Shown piece by piece: positions 12,711 to 63,998 of a stretch of DNA of 64,000 nt. Each line of letters begins with the position of its first letter. Within the stretch, counting starts at the first letter, position 1. Below the pieces are notes generated by a model, which worked only from the letters and a program-made list of their open reading frames with translations, did not search any database and was not told the DNA's origin. The stretch lies in the NCBI RefSeq assembly GCF_031456545.1, contig NZ_JAVDUV010000001.1, positions 1,116,001 to 1,180,000 of the forward strand, given 5' to 3'. This DNA comes from Agromyces sp. 3263. GTDB lineage: Bacteria > Actinomycetota > Actinomycetes > Actinomycetales > Microbacteriaceae. The position numbers were made by a program, and so were the translations under genes.

Positions 12711-12774
12711 TGGAATCCCGTTCGAGCGGCGGAATCCTCCACGTCGGGGATTCTCCTGCGCGAACGGGATTCCA
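12711..12774. repeat. Upstream hairpin of element A
   Basis: Outer arms TGGAATCCCGTTCG (12711-12724) and CGAACGGGATTCCA (12761-12774) are perfect over 14 bp. Inside them a second, imperfect pair runs GGCGGAATCC against GGATTCTCC. The outer arms match those of the downstream hairpin at 13969-14030 almost exactly, while the inner bases differ by compensated and uncompensated changes. The downstream half faces the nuclease gene. Confidence 0.85.
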
Positions 12775-12876
12775 CCGAAGCGTCGACTGCCCCTCCACAG
12801 CGCGGAGCCGACGGCCGCCACTCCCCCGCCACGCGCGGCGGCCCTCGGGGGCGGTCGATGAGGCGACGCTCATCCC

Positions 12877-13944
12877 ATGCCGCATTCCCTCCCACTCGAC
12901 CAGCACGGGTTCATCCGCTCGGCCGCCGTCAGGGCGATCGGCGCCGACGCCGAGTTGCGTGCCGCCCTGGCACGCGGAGAGCTCGAGCGTGCCCGGCGAG
13001 GGCTTTACCGAGCTGCGTCGATGCACGACGAGCACGACTTGGCGATGGCCGAGCGAGCGCGGCTCGCCTACCTGTCGAAGGTCCATGCGGTCGCCGCCAC
13101 CTTCCACGCGCCGGTCTTCACGAGCTACTCGGCCGTGGCCCTGCTGGGCCTTCCCATCTTCGGCGCGTGGCCGGCCGACGTCTTCATCATGTCGCGAAGC
13201 GAGCACGGCCGGCGCAGGTCGGGGGTGGTCGAAGTGGCGCGGACGCGAGACATAGACGTCACCGCGGTCGAAGGCATGCTCGTGACCTCGATCGAGTTCA
13301 CCCTGCTGCAGCTCGCGCGCCATGCACCGCTCGTCGCGGCATTGACGGCGACGGATGCGGCGTTGCACGTGCCGCGATTCGGTGGCGGTCAGCCGATGAC
13401 CACGCTCGAGTGCCTCAGGTCCGAGCACGATCGCCTGAAGCCGCATCCGCGGAGCCGCCGCGCCGACGCCGTCCTCGATCGCGCCACGCCGCTCGCGGAC
13501 ACACCGATCGAGAGCGGGAGCCGGCTCCTCATCGAGGAACTCGGATTCGCCCCTCCCGTGCTGCAGCACGAGTTGTGGCTCCCCGAGGCCGGCCGGCGGG
13601 CGTTCCTGGACTTCTACTGGCCCGAGATCCACGCTGGCGCCGAGGCGGACGGGCGCGGGAAGTACCTGGGAGGGAACATGGCATCGCCAGTCCGTGGTGC
13701 GCCGACTGCGCCCGATGCGATGGGTGCGGGCGGTCGGAACGACGCGTCCCGAGCGGCGGCTGCAGCGGCGGAGTTCGCGGCGGCCGCCGTCATCGCCGAG
13801 AAGGACCGCGAGAATGCGATCCGCCGGCAGCTCTCGGGGTTCGATCGTTGGGACTGGAACGACATGATGCGGAAGCGCCCCGTCGAGGCGCGCCTTGCAC
13901 GGCTCGGAGTGCCGCGCACCCGGCGACCGCTGACGTTGATCTGA
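12877..13944 (+). CDS. AbiEi-like N-terminal domain fused to a PD-(D/E)XK nuclease-like domain
   Basis: A 355-aa protein of a family abundant in Microbacteriaceae. Residues 8-45 resemble the AbiEi antitoxin winged helix ending in RRGLYR. A central domain (FTSYSAVALLGLP at 81-93) follows. The C-terminus has a nuclease-like core with D245, E256, D258 and K262 (pattern DFYWPE...EADGRGKY) and a closing helix EKDRENAIRRQL (308-319). An Ala/Gly-rich insert (about 265-305) sits inside the core. No toxin partner is adjacent, so a toxin-antitoxin role is unlikely as it stands. Both ends are bracketed by related hairpins (element A). Confidence 0.7.
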   Translation: MPHSLPLDQHGFIRSAAVRAIGADAELRAALARGELERARRGLYRAASMHDEHDLAMAERARLAYLSKVHAVAATFHAPVFTSYSAVALLGLPIFGAWPADVFIMSRSEHGRRRSGVVEVARTRDIDVTAVEGMLVTSIEFTLLQLARHAPLVAALTATDAALHVPRFGGGQPMTTLECLRSEHDRLKPHPRSRRADAVLDRATPLADTPIESGSRLLIEELGFAPPVLQHELWLPEAGRRAFLDFYWPEIHAGAEADGRGKYLGGNMASPVRGAPTAPDAMGAGGRNDASRAAAAAAEFAAAAVIAEKDRENAIRRQLSGFDRWDWNDMMRKRPVEARLARLGVPRTRRPLTLI

Positions 13945-13968
13945 GCGCTGGCACGAGGTGCAGCGCGG

Positions 13969-14030
13969 TGGAATCCCGTTCGCGCCGGGGAATCCCCAAC
14001 GCATGGATTCTCCCGCCCGAACGGGATTCC
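13969..14030. repeat. Downstream hairpin of element A
   Basis: GGAATCCCGTTCG (13970-13982) pairs perfectly with CGAACGGGATTCC (14018-14030). Between them GGGGAATCC and GGATTCTCC form the inner pair. The outer 13 bp are identical to the upstream hairpin of element A, 1.2 kb away. It begins 24 bp after the nuclease stop codon, so it could also act as its terminator. Confidence 0.85.
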
Positions 14031-59697: not shown

Positions 59698-61509
59698 ATG
59701 ACTTCCGAGTGGTGGCGCACTGCCGCGATCTACCAGATCTATCCCCGGTCCTTCGCCGACGCCAACGGCGACGGCATGGGCGACCTCGCCGGCATCACCA
59801 GCCGGCTCGGCGACCTGCAGGACCTCGGCATCGACGCCATCTGGCTCTCGCCCTTCTACACGTCGCCCCAGCGCGACGCCGGCTACGACGTCGCCGACTA
59901 CTGCGACGTCGACCCGCGGTTCGGCACGCTCGCCGACTTCGACGCGATGCTCGCCGAGGCGCACGCCCGCGGCATCCGCGTCATCATCGACCTCGTGCCC
60001 AACCACTCGTCGGACGAGCACGAGTGGTTCCAGGCCGCCCTCGCCGCGTCCGCCGGCAGCGCCGAGCGCGCCCGCTACCTCTTCCGAGACGGCCGTGGCC
60101 CGGCCGGCGACGAGCCGCCCAACAACTGGGAGTCGGTCTTCGGCGGCCCCGCGTGGACGCGCGTCGTCGAGCCCGACGGCACCGCCGGCCAGTGGTACCT
60201 CCACCTCTTCGACAGCTCGCAGCCCGACTTCGACTGGACGAACGAGGAGGTGCGCGAGGAGTTCCGCCGCATCCTGCGCTTCTGGCTCGACCGCGGGGTC
60301 GACGGGTTCCGCGTCGACGTCGCCCACGGCATGATCAAGGCCGACGGCCTCCCCGACTACACCCCGCCCACCGAGGGCGGCAGCATGGGCGGCGCCGGCG
60401 GCGTCGCGGTCGAGGCGGTCGACACGGCCGGCGAGCTCGTCGGTGCCGGGGTCGGCGCGAGCGCTTCGGTCGGCGGCTCGGCTGCGAGCGGCTCGGCTGC
60501 GAGCGGCTCCGCTGCCGGCGCGGCTGCCGCCGCGGCATCCGGCGTCACCCTCGAGCCCGCCATCAGCGACGACGCCGGCGACGGCGCGCCGTACTGGGGT
60601 CAGGACGGCGTCCACGAGATCTACCGCGACTGGCGCAAGGTCCTCGACGAGTACCCCGGCGAGCGCATCCTCGCCGCCGAGGCGTGGGTCGACCCGCTGC
60701 CCCGCGTGGCCAAGTGGGTGCGCCCCGACGAGATGCACCAGGCGTTCAACTTCGCGTACCTCGAGACCCCGTTCGACGCGGCCGCGTTGCGCACGGTCAT
60801 CGACGTCTCGCTCGCCGCCTTCGGCGCGGTCGGCGCGCCCTCGACGTGGGTGCTCTCCAACCACGACGTGGTGCGGCACGCCACCCGCCTGTCGGTGACC
60901 GAGGCGAACCCGCAGGGCCACGGCCTCGGCCCCCGTTCGAAGGGCCTGCCCGAGTACGCCACCGGCCTGCGCCGCGCCCGCGCCGCCACCGCGCTGATGC
61001 TCGCACTGCCCGGCTCGTCCTATCTGTACCAGGGCGAGGAGCTCGGCCTGCCCGAGGTCATCCACCTGCCCGACGACGCGCGCCAGGACCCGACCTGGTT
61101 CCGCACGAACGGCGAGCGCTACGGCCGCGACGGATGCCGCGTGCCCATCCCGTGGGAGGCCGACGCGCACGCCTACGGCTTCGGCCCCGACGGCGACCCA
61201 TGGCTCCCGCAGCCCGCGCAGTGGCGCGAGCTCGCGCGCGACCGCCAGCGCGGCGTGGCCGACTCGACGCTCACGCTCTACCAGGACGCGCTGCGCCTGC
61301 GCCGCGAGCACGACCTCGGCGCCGGATCGGTGGAGTGGCTGCCCGGCTTCCCGGCGACCGCGGTCGCGCTGCGCAACGGCGACGTCGTCGTCGTGGCGAA
61401 CACCGGCTCCGAGCCGGTCGAGCTGCCCGCCGGCGACGTGCTGCTCACGAGCGGCCCGCTCGACGGTCGGTCGCTCCCCCGCGACACGACGGCCTGGCTC
61501 CGCGCCTAG
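59698..61509 (+). CDS. GH13 alpha-glucosidase / oligo-1,6-glucosidase-like enzyme
   Basis: A 603-aa cytosolic glycoside hydrolase. WWRTAAIYQIYPRSFADANG is the classic start; D207 in FRVDVAH is the nucleophile, E328 in LAAEAW the acid-base, and SNHDVVRH holds the third carboxylate. A 60-residue Gly/Ala/Ser-rich insertion (about 227-285) splits the loop between strands 4 and 5, which is unusual. It is divergent from malE-malF-malG and shares LacI-type operators, so it likely cleaves imported maltodextrins. No signal peptide is present. Confidence 0.92.
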   Translation: MTSEWWRTAAIYQIYPRSFADANGDGMGDLAGITSRLGDLQDLGIDAIWLSPFYTSPQRDAGYDVADYCDVDPRFGTLADFDAMLAEAHARGIRVIIDLVPNHSSDEHEWFQAALAASAGSAERARYLFRDGRGPAGDEPPNNWESVFGGPAWTRVVEPDGTAGQWYLHLFDSSQPDFDWTNEEVREEFRRILRFWLDRGVDGFRVDVAHGMIKADGLPDYTPPTEGGSMGGAGGVAVEAVDTAGELVGAGVGASASVGGSAASGSAASGSAAGAAAAAASGVTLEPAISDDAGDGAPYWGQDGVHEIYRDWRKVLDEYPGERILAAEAWVDPLPRVAKWVRPDEMHQAFNFAYLETPFDAAALRTVIDVSLAAFGAVGAPSTWVLSNHDVVRHATRLSVTEANPQGHGLGPRSKGLPEYATGLRRARAATALMLALPGSSYLYQGEELGLPEVIHLPDDARQDPTWFRTNGERYGRDGCRVPIPWEADAHAYGFGPDGDPWLPQPAQWRELARDRQRGVADSTLTLYQDALRLRREHDLGAGSVEWLPGFPATAVALRNGDVVVVANTGSEPVELPAGDVLLTSGPLDGRSLPRDTTAWLRA

Positions 61510-61518
61510 CCCACACAC

Positions 61519-61645
61519 CGAGCGGATGCCGCGGGCCCGCGCCGCGGCATCCGCTCGCCGTGCGGCCCAAGGCTCGCCCCACGGCATCCGCCCGCCCCGC
61601 GGCATCCGCTCGTCCCGCGGCATCCACCCCCCGCGGCATCCGCTC
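61519..61645. repeat. GGATGCCGC hairpin followed by an array of single copies
   Basis: CGAGCGGATGCCGCGG (61519-61534) and CCGCGGCATCCGCTCG (61542-61557) are perfect 16-bp arms around a 7-nt loop, 9 bp after the GH13 stop. Four further CGGCATCC copies follow at about 18-bp spacing (near 61582, 61600, 61619 and 61636). The hairpin fits a terminator; the array does not. Confidence 0.75.
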
Positions 61646-61669
61646 GCGCCGCGGCAGCGCCCCTCCAGA

Positions 61670-61729
61670 ACGCATGAGAATCCGCCGTTCAGCGCGACAG
61701 CACGGCGTATCGAGCGGATTCTCATGCGT
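61670..61729. repeat. Downstream hairpin of element B
   Basis: ACGCATGAGAATCCGC (61670-61685) pairs with GCGGATTCTCATGCGT (61714-61729), perfect over 16 bp, with a 28-nt interior that is not obviously paired. The same outer 15 bp recur in the hairpin at 62737-62798. Confidence 0.9.
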
Positions 61730-61741
61730 CTCGCCGGCACC

Positions 61742-62646
61742 TCATGCCGGTGACGCCGGAACCGCTTCGTGCGGGCCGCGACCGGACCAGAGATGCTCGT
61801 TCCGCGCGACCAGCGCGAGAATTCCTGCGCACGTCCGATCCCAATCGTGAACGACCTGCCGGTAGCTGAGTCGGAGGACGAGGTACCCGCGAGTCACGAG
61901 CTCGAAGTCGCGGCGGCGGTCCTCGTCGAACGCGGTGCCGGTGTGGAACGCGCGTCCGTCGACCTCGATGACCAGCCGGTCGCTGACGAGAATGTCGACG
62001 CGGCCGGCCCCGTCGATGACGACTTGCACGCGGTGCCTGATCCTCCGCGACCGGAGGAACAATCGAACCGCGCCTCGAGACCCGACTGGGCTTCCGCGTC
62101 CGCGCGGTCGAGCAGGCCGCGCCTCGACGGCGGCATCCAGGCGCGGACGAGGTCGAGATGCTGCAGTGACAGGGTCCCGGCGGCGAGAGCGGAGTCCACC
62201 GAGGCGATCGCAGTCGCGACATCCGTGCATGCGAACATCTCGGCCAGGGCGACCGTGATCAGGTCCGCTGCTCGGTCGAACGGACCTCGTCGGCTGTAGT
62301 GCACGCAGACGCGGTCGCGCGTGCGATCGAGCGGCTGGCGACGGTCGTGTGGCGCGAAGAGCCGCCCCGTCGAGTACCGGACTCGCACGTGAAGCTGCGC
62401 GTCGTCGGCGACCCAGAGCCCCCGGACACGTGCGACGGTCGCTGCGGTCGCCACCCCGCCCACTCTCACCGCTCGCACCACATCCAGGGGCGCCTCGGGC
62501 GTCGCGAACCAGCCGTTTCGGATCCGAACGACGTCACCGCGTCGCAGCGCACGCTCGAGGTCGGCCGGATTGCATCCGGCCGCCACCAAGCTCGCACGCG
62601 CCGCGACCCCACCTTGTTGGCGGATGACCGCCGTCATCGATTCCAC
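61742..62646 (-). pseudogene. AbiEi-like/DUF559 nuclease-type gene with one frameshift
   Basis: The N-terminal frame runs from 62646 (MESMTAVIRQQGGVAARASL, with RNGWFATPEAPLDVVRAVR) through an AbiEi-like winged helix and central domain to about 62067. The C-terminal half continues in another frame to 61742 and holds a complete DUF559/Vsr-like PD-(D/E)XK core: GRVDILVSDRLVIEVDGRAFH, then DEDRRRDFELVTRGYLVLRL. One extra C at TTCGA (complement of 62063-62067) would restore EARFRLFLRSRR, the usual family sequence. So one base is missing by mutation or by sequencing error. Ribosomal frameshifting cannot be excluded. Confidence 0.75.
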
Positions 62647-62736
62647 GGGTCGAGTGTGGCGCCCCTCCGGCCTCCAGCCGGGTCGGTGCCCCGATCTGTG
62701 GAAAGCGGCGAGCCGGACCTCGGGCCTGCGGACGAC

Positions 62737-62798
62737 AACGCATGAGAATCCGTCGAATGCCCTGCATCAGCAGGACATCGGCAGGATTCTCATGCGTT
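62737..62798. repeat. Upstream hairpin of element B
   Basis: AACGCATGAGAATCC (62737-62751) pairs perfectly over 15 bp with GGATTCTCATGCGTT (62784-62798). Inside, CCTGC-ATCA-GCAGG (62761-62774) makes a second small hairpin. The outer arms repeat those at 61670-61729. Confidence 0.9.
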
Positions 62799-62831: not shown

Positions 62832-63998
62832 TCAGTTCGTGTTGGCGTAGAGCCACTCGAGCGGGTCGACCTTGGTGCCGTCGACGCCGCCGAGGCGGAT
62901 CTCGAAGTGCAGGTGCGGACCCGTCGACATGCCGGTGTTGCCCGTCTTGCCGATGACGTCGGCGACGTGCACGGTGTCGCCGACCTCGAAGCGCCGCGAT
63001 CCCTCGATCATGTGGGCGTACACGCTCGTCACGAGCTCGCCGTCGATGATGTGGTCGATCATCATGACGACGCCCAGCGACCCGCCGGAGTCGGTCGAGA
63101 CCGCGACGGTGCCGTCGGCGATCGCCTGGATCTCGGCGCCGTAGCCGGGGTTGAAGTCCTGGCCGCCGTGGTCCTCCGAGCAGCCGGCGCAGTTGCGGTA
63201 GCCGAAGTGGTCGCCGATGTGCACGCCGACCGCGAACGGCCACTGGATCGTGCCGGCCGGATTGTTGGTGAAGTCGGCCTCGGCGCGGATGCCGGCGGCC
63301 TGCGCGTACTCCTGGATGGTCTGGTGCTCGTAGCCCTCGCGCTCGACGGTCTGCGCGACCACGTTGCCGTCGATCGTCACGCTCTGCCCGCCACGATCGC
63401 CGCCGGTCGCGCTCGCCATGGCCATCGCCTGCACGTCGGCGGGCGAGAGCAGCGAGAGCGACGGGATCGTCGTCGCGACGGCGAGCATCGCCACGAAGCT
63501 CATCGCCACCACGCTCGCGATGCGCCGGCCGCCGCGCCGCTTCGGCGCAGATGCCGCGGCGCGCGCCGTGGGGTGCCCCGACGCCTGCGGTGCCGACCGC
63601 CGGGTGGGCGCGGCCGCGCGCACGACGTCACGACGCGAGACCGGGCCCGTCGATGCCGGTGAGGTGCCGGGAGCACTCCGGTCGGGCGCGGAGGCTGCAT
63701 CGGCGTCGACTCGCGGCGGGGCGCTCGGAGCGAATCCGAGCAGGTCGGACGCGGGCGTCACCTCGGCGGGCAGGCCACGCGATGCGCGGCGGGACGACGG
63801 GGTGGCGGCGGACGGTGCGGACAGGTCGAAGGCGAGTGGTGCGGGAGCGACGGATGCCGCTGCCCGGCCCGGCTCGTCGGCGGGCCGTGCCCCGGCCGCG
63901 GCCGAGATGGCGGCGGCGAAGCTGGAGGCCGCGCCCGCGACGGCGCCCGAACCCGCTCCGAGGGCTGCAGCATCGCCCGCTGGGAAACCCGGGCGCAC
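62832..63998 (-). CDS. M23-family peptidase, membrane-anchored (start possibly outside window)
   Basis: At least 388 aa. The N-terminal 170 residues are Ala/Pro/Arg-rich and presumably cytosolic. One transmembrane helix (about 164-186, ASVVAMSFVAMLAVATTI) leads to the outer part. The C-terminal LytM/M23 domain (about 240-388) has DHGGQDFNPG with His and Asp zinc ligands and the closing GPHLHFEIR. It cuts peptidoglycan cross-bridges or activates other hydrolases during growth. The GTG at 63998 may be the start, but the frame could continue beyond the window edge. Confidence 0.85.
   Translation of the reverse strand: MRPGFPAGDAAALGAGSGAVAGAASSFAAAISAAAGARPADEPGRAAASVAPAPLAFDLSAPSAATPSSRRASRGLPAEVTPASDLLGFAPSAPPRVDADAASAPDRSAPGTSPASTGPVSRRDVVRAAAPTRRSAPQASGHPTARAAASAPKRRGGRRIASVVAMSFVAMLAVATTIPSLSLLSPADVQAMAMASATGGDRGGQSVTIDGNVVAQTVEREGYEHQTIQEYAQAAGIRAEADFTNNPAGTIQWPFAVGVHIGDHFGYRNCAGCSEDHGGQDFNPGYGAEIQAIADGTVAVSTDSGGSLGVVMMIDHIIDGELVTSVYAHMIEGSRRFEVGDTVHVADVIGKTGNTGMSTGPHLHFEIRLGGVDGTKVDPLEWLYANTN

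What the first reader, a model, noticed from the sequence alone, without database searches (positions are those of the whole stretch)
61670..62798. Second element with the same architecture and its own hairpin arms (element B)
Element B repeats the plan of A: hairpin, about 90-100 bp leader, AbiEi-like/DUF559 gene, 12-24 bp, hairpin. Both units sit in gaps between convergent genes, one in each orientation. The arms of B (ACGCATGAGAATCC) differ from those of A, but within each element the two hairpins match, and both families share a GAGAATCC/GGATTCTC core. Matched arms within a unit and different arms between units suggest that each protein recognises its own hairpin, a co-evolving pair. Two such units within 64 kb argue against chance.
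Basis: partly seen in the sequence, partly recalled or inferred. Interest (0 to 1): 0.88.

Follow-up and report, generated by a model that had tools for sequence, protein, structure and literature searches.

The report
Nuclease gene bracketed by its sites
A bacterial gene for a probable DNA-cutting protein sits between two copies of what looks like that protein's own DNA recognition site, more copies are scattered round the chromosome, and protein and sites appear to change together over evolution, which suggests an undescribed kind of DNA-cutter-and-site partnership.

Summary
Element B (61670-62798) is an AbiEi/DUF559 gene between two matched palindromes with 14-bp arms; element A (12711-14030) has the same plan. 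This copy of the B gene is frameshifted. The host is probably an Agromyces.

Matching palindromes flank 52 of 96 such genes in the genus and 37 of 61 in other genera (cross-pairing controls 1-3%; virtual genes 0 of 224). Arms track protein identity. Arms also recur as solo sites, mostly where the cognate gene is present (11 of 12 gene-bearing family-genome cases against 8 of 152 without).

The unit behaves like a resident locus, not a recent insertion: orthologues at one position keep matched flanks while the arm sequence changes.

The "hairpins" read better as double-stranded bipartite sites: outer span equal in 63 of 82 pairs, near-random centres, no within-genome covariation. A modelled B relative is an AbiEi antitoxin fold plus a Vsr/EDxHD-like nuclease domain.

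Best reading: a dimeric site-specific nuclease with dispersed cognate sites. It resembles REPIN/RAYT but shares neither its enzyme nor a demonstrable hairpin. Binding and cutting are inferred. No description was found in the open-access searches made.

The parts
61670..61729 (.). Element B, 3' bipartite palindromic site (arms ACGCATGAGAATCC; 60-bp outer span)
   Evidence: span equal to that of the 5' site (L001)
61742..62230 (-). Element B gene, second frame: DUF559 nuclease-like domain
   Evidence: PF04480 E=6.3e-8, 32.9 bits over the 20.6 cut-off
61894..62646 (-). Element B gene, first frame from GTG 62646: AbiEi-type DNA-binding part; the frame breaks at the start of the nuclease domain
   Evidence: AbiEi_4 E=1.6e-4, 22.2 bits, below the 25-bit cut-off
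62737..62798 (.). Element B, 5' bipartite palindromic site (same arms, different centre)
12711..12774 (.). Element A, 5' palindromic site (outer arm TGGAATCCCGTTCG)
   Evidence: one further solo copy in the genome at C1:809290
12877..13944 (+). Element A gene, 355 aa, AbiEi_4 N-terminus with a divergent C-terminal part
   Evidence: AbiEi_4 E=4.4e-6, 27.1 bits over cut-off, no PF04480 match; lacks the EDxHD-like pattern
13970..14030 (.). Element A, 3' palindromic site (same outer arm)

Best explanation
Element B is one member of a large family of chromosomal units in Actinomycetota: a single gene for a probable site-specific nuclease (AbiEi antitoxin fold followed by a Vsr/EDxHD-type nuclease domain) bracketed by two copies of its own recognition site, with further solo copies elsewhere in the same genome. 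Each site is two inverted half-sites of roughly 14-24 bp at a fixed distance across a centre whose sequence is free. Proposed mechanism: two AbiEi-type modules bind the inverted half-sites in double-stranded DNA and set two nuclease domains over the centre, where they nick or cut, much as a FokI-type fusion would; occupation of the 5' site may also autoregulate the gene. Recombination and selection then keep the gene's two sites and the solo sites matched to the protein as its specificity drifts. Shown: architecture, matching, equal spans, dispersal, arm-protein tracking, residence at orthologous loci, predicted fold. Inferred: binding, cutting, and how sites arise.
Against: No binding or cleavage data exist. 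The window's own B gene is frameshifted although six B sites remain in the genome. G037 has 8 B-type sites with no DUF559 match beside any of them; two genomes have A-type sites with no A-like gene within 1.5 kb. No matched pair was found for 44 of 96 loci, and of 12 B orthologues at one locus only 6 showed a palindrome on both sides at the threshold. Element A lacks a recognisable EDxHD pattern. Long-term survival of intact sites is hard to reconcile with efficient cutting. No copying event was caught with certainty: centres are near random (one pair of 136 in G035 shares 13 of 18) and no clean empty site was found.
Confidence: 0.6

Rival explanations
1. Dispersed operator network: the protein is a DNA-binding regulator or chromosome organiser, the scattered sites are bound but not cut, and the nuclease domain acts elsewhere or only under damage.
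For: AbiEi autoregulates through inverted repeats. Arms of three orthologous solo sites differ less than their centres, as expected of useful bound sites. Eight pairs of solo sites lie at matching positions in different species by long flank matches.
Against: EDxHD-like residues are present in 70 of 72 intact named relatives by pattern and, by eye, in the other two. An operator alone does not explain a site on both sides of the gene. Only 7 of 67 sites scored were between divergent genes, the place for promoters, by a rough frame test without a genome-wide control.
Confidence: 0.25
2. REPIN/RAYT-like single-strand hairpins: the palindromes fold on the lagging strand and are processed or copied in trans by the protein.
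For: Same population structure: one resident gene, own palindromes beside it, solo copies elsewhere, gene-palindrome co-evolution. REPINs are also two conserved inverted ends (PMC3116915, passages). One orthologous pair shows a two-sided change just outside the arms (L187/L205). Pooled over genomes, B inner positions covary (255 against 216.7, 0 of 5000) and the outer positions -8 to 0 of the GCGGATATACG family pair slightly more than shuffled (183 against 167.2, 251 of 5000).
Against: Within single genomes the B covariation is not significant (4 of 4 genomes, 5 to 11 copies each), and the outer positions within G035 pair less than shuffled (64 against 76.0). Inner arms of the GCGGATATACG family pair less than shuffled (324 against 343.0; 9 of 5000 as low). 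Pfam found no transposase in the B frames or in the 13 relatives scanned.
Confidence: 0.12
3. An active transposon or homing unit that moves gene plus both palindromes as one cassette.
For: Gene with matched ends on both sides; B locus empty in two genomes.
Against: Among pairs with matched sites and 55-99% protein identity, 126 of 246 share at least one flank. Different-locus pairs rarely share arms (3 of 91 at 55-65%, 3 of 28 at 65-75%). Only 1 of 72,556 plasmid and 1 of 50,697 phage records match the L224 protein at E 1e-5. No target duplication or clean junction seen.
Confidence: 0.05

Closest known systems
REPIN/RAYT (REP-associated tyrosine transposase) systems
   Same: Resident chromosomal gene with its own palindromes alongside, solo copies elsewhere, gene-palindrome co-evolution; REPIN also has conserved inverted ends (PMC3116915, passages seen).
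   Different: Enzyme has an AbiEi plus Vsr/EDxHD fold, not an HUH transposase (that RAYTs are HUH enzymes: PMC6006769 and PMC8266576 listings, and recall); 1 to 27 exact-arm places per genome that has any; fixed spacing, and arms not shown to be selected as a hairpin.
EDxHD homing endonuclease I-Bth0305I
   Different: Free-standing gene with an intact site on both sides, many sites in the same genome, different DNA-binding part.
AbiEi antitoxin / type IV AbiE toxin-antitoxin
   Same: N-terminal 185 residues resemble AbiEi (6y8q); AbiEi binds pairs of 23-bp inverted repeats (PMC7319586, passages).
   Different: Fused nuclease-like domain; no AbiEii partner inside unit B or beside it; sites on both sides of the gene and dispersed.
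Vsr very-short-patch repair endonuclease
   Different: Extra DNA-binding part and long cognate sites; nothing here suggests a mismatch role.

Membership tests
REPIN/RAYT | HUH single-tyrosine transposase | tested here: not met
   Pfam finds only DUF559, MTES_1575 and AbiEi families in 13 relatives; model matches AbiEi and Vsr/EDxHD structures
REPIN/RAYT | Palindromes beside the gene and dispersed in the genome | tested here: met
REPIN/RAYT | Palindrome acts as a folded hairpin | tested here: inconclusive
   No significant within-genome covariation and inner arms of one family pair less than shuffled, but pooled tests go the other way; outer arms are complementary and could still fold
EDxHD homing endonuclease | EDxHD catalytic residues and fold | tested here: met
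   Fold: 3r3p hits. E, D, H, D invariant in 13 of 13 and 40 of 40 aligned relatives (40 of 72 intact ones were aligned). The residue assignment is mine: in the 3r3p sequence as deposited the D and H positions align to A. Element A does not fit
EDxHD homing endonuclease | Gene interrupts and so protects its own target (recalled definition) | tested here: not met
   In B and the other matched loci both flanking sites keep both arms
EDxHD homing endonuclease | Cleaves its target | not testable with these tools
   needs biochemistry
AbiE toxin-antitoxin | Adjacent AbiEii toxin gene | tested here: not met
   For B only: the neighbours are Alpha-amylase (PF00128) and Peptidase_M23 (PF01551) genes. 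Neighbours of other units were not scanned
AbiE toxin-antitoxin | AbiEi fold | tested here: met
IS200/IS605 or other transposon | Transposase and recent mobility | tested here: not met
   No transposase domain; residence at shared loci

The most novel reading that the evidence does not exclude
A previously undescribed class of intragenomic system: dimeric AbiEi-EDxHD nucleases, each with a private set of bipartite double-stranded sites that bracket its gene and dot the chromosome, whose specificity drifts rapidly at a fixed locus while its sites follow, perhaps by cut-and-repair conversion. It would be a non-HUH counterpart of REPIN/RAYT and a natural catalogue of long-site nucleases.
Probability: 0.45. 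Interest if true: 0.93.

Novelty: categorically new. Interest (0 to 1): 0.85.

Why it matters
DUF559 proteins are common and of unassigned function here: 40 of 41 genomes of this genus have at least one DUF559 match, up to 7. Giving them cognate sites turns them into testable nucleases. Matched protein-site pairs would let the recognition code of an AbiEi-type domain be read from sequence, could supply natural nucleases with targets of roughly 30-90 bp (spans), and make an open question testable outside the REPIN/RAYT world: how a chromosomal DNA-processing enzyme and a set of its own sites persist together.

Tried and rejected
Hairpin reading: tested by covariation and set aside, not excluded. 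Recent cassette insertion: looked for empty sites of A, B, C and three solos in 40 genomes (own, 24 of the genus, 15 of the order) and of eight sites of G017 in G020. Loci without the site exist, but intergenic DNA is too diverged for a junction. A DUF559 remnant between the two close B sites of G037 (L175) and of G010 (L171): none found. A cognate A-like gene next to the A-type sites of G014 and G025: none within the fetched 1.5 kb flanks; these genomes were not searched whole for one. Clustering of solos near the gene: seen by eye in G010 only, not tested. A dimer on DNA was not modelled. VIA-align rows other than those quoted are mid-range and not interpreted. The primary I-Bth0305I paper is not held; I used a review's passages.

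Weak points of the counts. The gene-versus-no-gene table counts a genome as gene-bearing if a DUF559 match (for A, an A-like gene) lies between copies of the arm; no DUF559 match lies beside the sites of the exceptional genomes for the GCGGATATACG and B families, but not every DUF559 locus was fetched. G035's B orthologue (L011) has arms ACATGAGAATCCG that my pattern misses; G035 was counted as not gene-bearing for B (3 of 4 would otherwise be 3 of 5). Family A rests on one genome. The pair counts are not independent, some genomes enter twice (an unnamed and a named record), and only units with matched sites enter. The named loci are the best 80 of 175.

Literature searches: all listings only. 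Passages seen by find: PMC3943268, PMC7319586, PMC3116915, PMC12306157, PMC3733652. DUF559 occurs in 14 papers of the library, and none of their titles or abstract openings concerns this arrangement; I did not read them.

Full report
WHAT IS THERE. Element B lies between an alpha-amylase-family gene ending at 61509 and a Peptidase_M23 gene ending at 62832, which converge on it. Two palindromes, 61670-61729 and 62737-62798, carry the same 14-bp arm ACGCATGAGAATCC and different centres. Between them, on the minus strand, is an AbiEi/DUF559 gene split over two frames: the AbiEi-like part in 61894-62646 and the DUF559 part in 61742-62230. So the copy in this window is a pseudogene or carries a sequencing error. 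Element A (12711-14030) has the same plan on the other strand with other arms. A third unit, C, lies on another contig, with 22-24-bp arms. The ten best named relatives of the query alignment are all Agromyces, so the host is probably of that genus.

IS IT MORE THAN CHANCE. I took 96 loci of the gene family: 6 (one under Pfam's cut-off), element A, 29, and 60 more places fetched by position. The remaining places, mostly lower-scoring, were not fetched for this count, and L008, a duplicate of L004, was dropped. In 52 of 96 the gene lies between two palindromes sharing at least 9 nt of arm, and in 42 at least 10 nt; pairing the left flank of one locus with the right flank of another gives 20 and 11 of 1500. 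Virtual genes of 900 bp in 35 control loci gave 0 of 224. Outside the genus 37 of 61 named loci qualify, among them Microbacterium 20 of 28, against 59 of 2000 cross pairings; in the same call Agromyces had 10 of 19.

PROTEIN AND ARM GO TOGETHER. Among the 52 matched loci the share of protein pairs with at least 9 nt of common arm is 0.010-0.039 in each identity band below 50%, 0.075 at 50-60%, 0.703 at 60-80% (37 pairs) and 3 of 3 above. The Mantel rank correlation is 0.20, with 0 of 999 permutations reaching it. Pairs are not independent, and arms of close relatives are partly shared by descent. The more telling test is at one chromosomal position. For orthologues sharing both flanks, arms still shared (at least 9 nt) fall from 11 of 12 pairs (75-99% protein identity) to 19 of 26, 23 of 56 and 2 of 42 (45-55%), although each unit entered keeps two sites that match each other; having them was the condition for entry. 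Different-locus pairs share arms in 3 of 28, 3 of 91 and 21 of 322 in the bands from 65-75% down to 45-55%. So the two flanking sites change in step while the locus stays put.

RESIDENT, NOT FRESHLY INSERTED. The position beside the M23 gene holds a DUF559 gene in the 12 genomes (placement). At the threshold of that of the 12 show palindromes on both sides of the gene, 5 on one side only and 1 (L094) none, though a lower threshold had given L094 a matched pair. Arms differ from species to species: GCATGAGAATCC, AGGATGAG, GCAGGAAA and others. G008 and G022 lack the gene there, their flanks running through at 73-75% identity. Only 1 of 72,556 plasmid records and 1 of 50,697 phage records encode a relative of the L224 protein at E 1e-5.

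SOLO SITES. In the same 41 genomes, GCGGATATACGATCCG occurs in 8 and its reversed control in none. All five genomes with a gene flanked by these arms (G002, G017, G020, G026, G035) also have solo copies; three genomes without such a gene have copies too (G011, G018, G033). B-type palindromes occur in 7 of 41 genomes: G000 6, G009 6, G010 11, G026 2, G037 8, G011 1, G034 1. G026 has only its two flanking sites, and in G037, G011 and G034 no DUF559 match lies beside a site. C arms occur in 2 of 41, both with a DUF559 gene between copies of the arm. A palindromes occur in 3 of 41; an A-like gene was seen only in G000, the others not being searched whole. Counting solo copies over family-genome combinations gives 11 of 12 with the gene and 8 of 152 without (caveats under Tried and rejected).

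NATURE OF THE SITE. Outer spans of the 5' and 3' sites are exactly equal in 63 of 82 measurable pairs (89 in all), against a shuffled mean of 2.8 and maximum of 8; five more differ by 1. Within genome G035, 17 of the 20 copies fetched fit the full pattern; their arms are 92% identical on average and their centres 39%, near the 36% of random strings, though one pair of 136 shares 13 of 18 centre bases, which random strings do with frequency 0.0003. In three orthologous pairs of G017 and G020 the arms are 138/144 identical and the centres 39/54, consistent with selection on arms and free centres. If the structure were a hairpin, paired positions should covary. Within four genomes (5 to 11 copies each) the B inner positions do not do so significantly. 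In the GCGGATATACG family the inner arms pair less than shuffled (324 against 343.0; 9 of 5000 as low), the two halves of a site tending to differ at positions 17, 19 and 21. Three results point the other way: B positions covary when genomes are pooled (255 against 216.7, 0 of 5000), which genome-specific consensus can explain; positions just outside the GCGGATATACG arms pair slightly more than shuffled when pooled (183 against 167.2, 251 of 5000), though less within G035 (64 against 76.0); and one orthologous pair shows a two-sided change beside the arms. Double-stranded half-sites at a fixed distance fit best.

THE PROTEIN. All 13 aligned relatives of A1 keep E191, D218, H235 and D243 (numbering of L018), which I take as the E-D-x-H-D residues; the 40 named relatives aligned of 72 intact ones keep the equivalents. 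In 3r3p as deposited, the positions of D and H align to A, so this assignment rests on recall of the family motif and not on that alignment. A looser pattern is present in 91 of 96 genus loci; it is missing in L081, L006, L013, element A, and L001, of which only the first frame was read. A profile of 40 relatives hits 3hrl (7e-9) and the I-Bth0305I catalytic domain 3r3p (5.6e-7). The model of the L224 protein (mean pLDDT 92.0) matches AbiEi 6y8q over residues 1-185 and 3r3p, 3hrl and Vsr over 184-286. AbiEi binds two 23-bp inverted repeats in its promoter, and Rv2827c binds such repeats with a 13-bp gap (PMC7319586, passages). I-Bth0305I is described as dimerising on a target of nearly 60 bp (PMC3943268, passages). 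Two AbiEi-type half-sites around a free centre, with a nuclease domain fused behind, is therefore a coherent machine. That step is inference.

WHAT IT DOES. Most likely the protein binds its sites as a dimer and nicks or cuts in the centre, with repair and selection keeping gene-flanking and solo sites in step. One case fits sites following the protein: at the position of a G000 solo site, G012 has a palindrome with its own arms and the same 68-bp span as the one beside its own B orthologue. This is a single case, and independent gain is not excluded. Of 67 sites scored, 35 lie between tandem, 25 between convergent and 7 between divergent genes, by a rough frame test without a genome-wide control; at least three of the 67 (in L224, L225, L227) flank a gene and are not solo. 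Why cells tolerate the enzyme, and whether the system is selfish or useful, remains open.

NOVELTY. It works like REPIN/RAYT but fails its enzyme test. It has the catalytic fold of an EDxHD homing endonuclease but its gene does not disrupt its target. It has an AbiEi fold without, for B, a toxin partner. No description was found in the searches listed under Tried and rejected, which cover open-access papers only.

Noticed in passing
61742-62646: The B gene is interrupted by a frame change at the start of its nuclease domain, while six B-type sites persist in the genome.
   Followed up: partly
61519-61655: Run of GCGGCATCCG/CGGATGCCGC palindromes beside element B; a stretch with the same motif gave many short hits in G020, so it seems to be a separate, very abundant repeat.
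   Followed up: no
matched sites in L023, L035, L038, L039, L290, L301 and others: An inner motif GACACGCC/GGCGTGTC recurs inside sites with unrelated outer arms: 23 of 178 sites (15 loci), shuffled mean 0.66, outer control segments 1 of 172.
   Followed up: partly
L270, L283, L292, L293, L298, L268, L097: Of 19 pairs whose two sites differ in span, 7 differ by exactly 19 or 38 bp, as if half-sites were stacked in steps of about 19 bp.
   Followed up: no
L018:1139-1407: Three B-type sites in tandem about 106 bp apart beside one gene, with similar intervening sequence: a local tandem duplication.
   Followed up: no
L114-L133 and relatives: Outside the arms of the GCGGATATACG family a G at script position -9 (69 of 86 arms) and a C at -6 (71 of 86) are conserved; inside, alternate bases (15, 17, 19, 21) are the variable ones.
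   Followed up: partly
L239, L257, L275, L278, L281, L290, L293, L300: 8 of 80 named relatives have stops within the matched coding stretch, so decay of the gene may be common.
   Followed up: no
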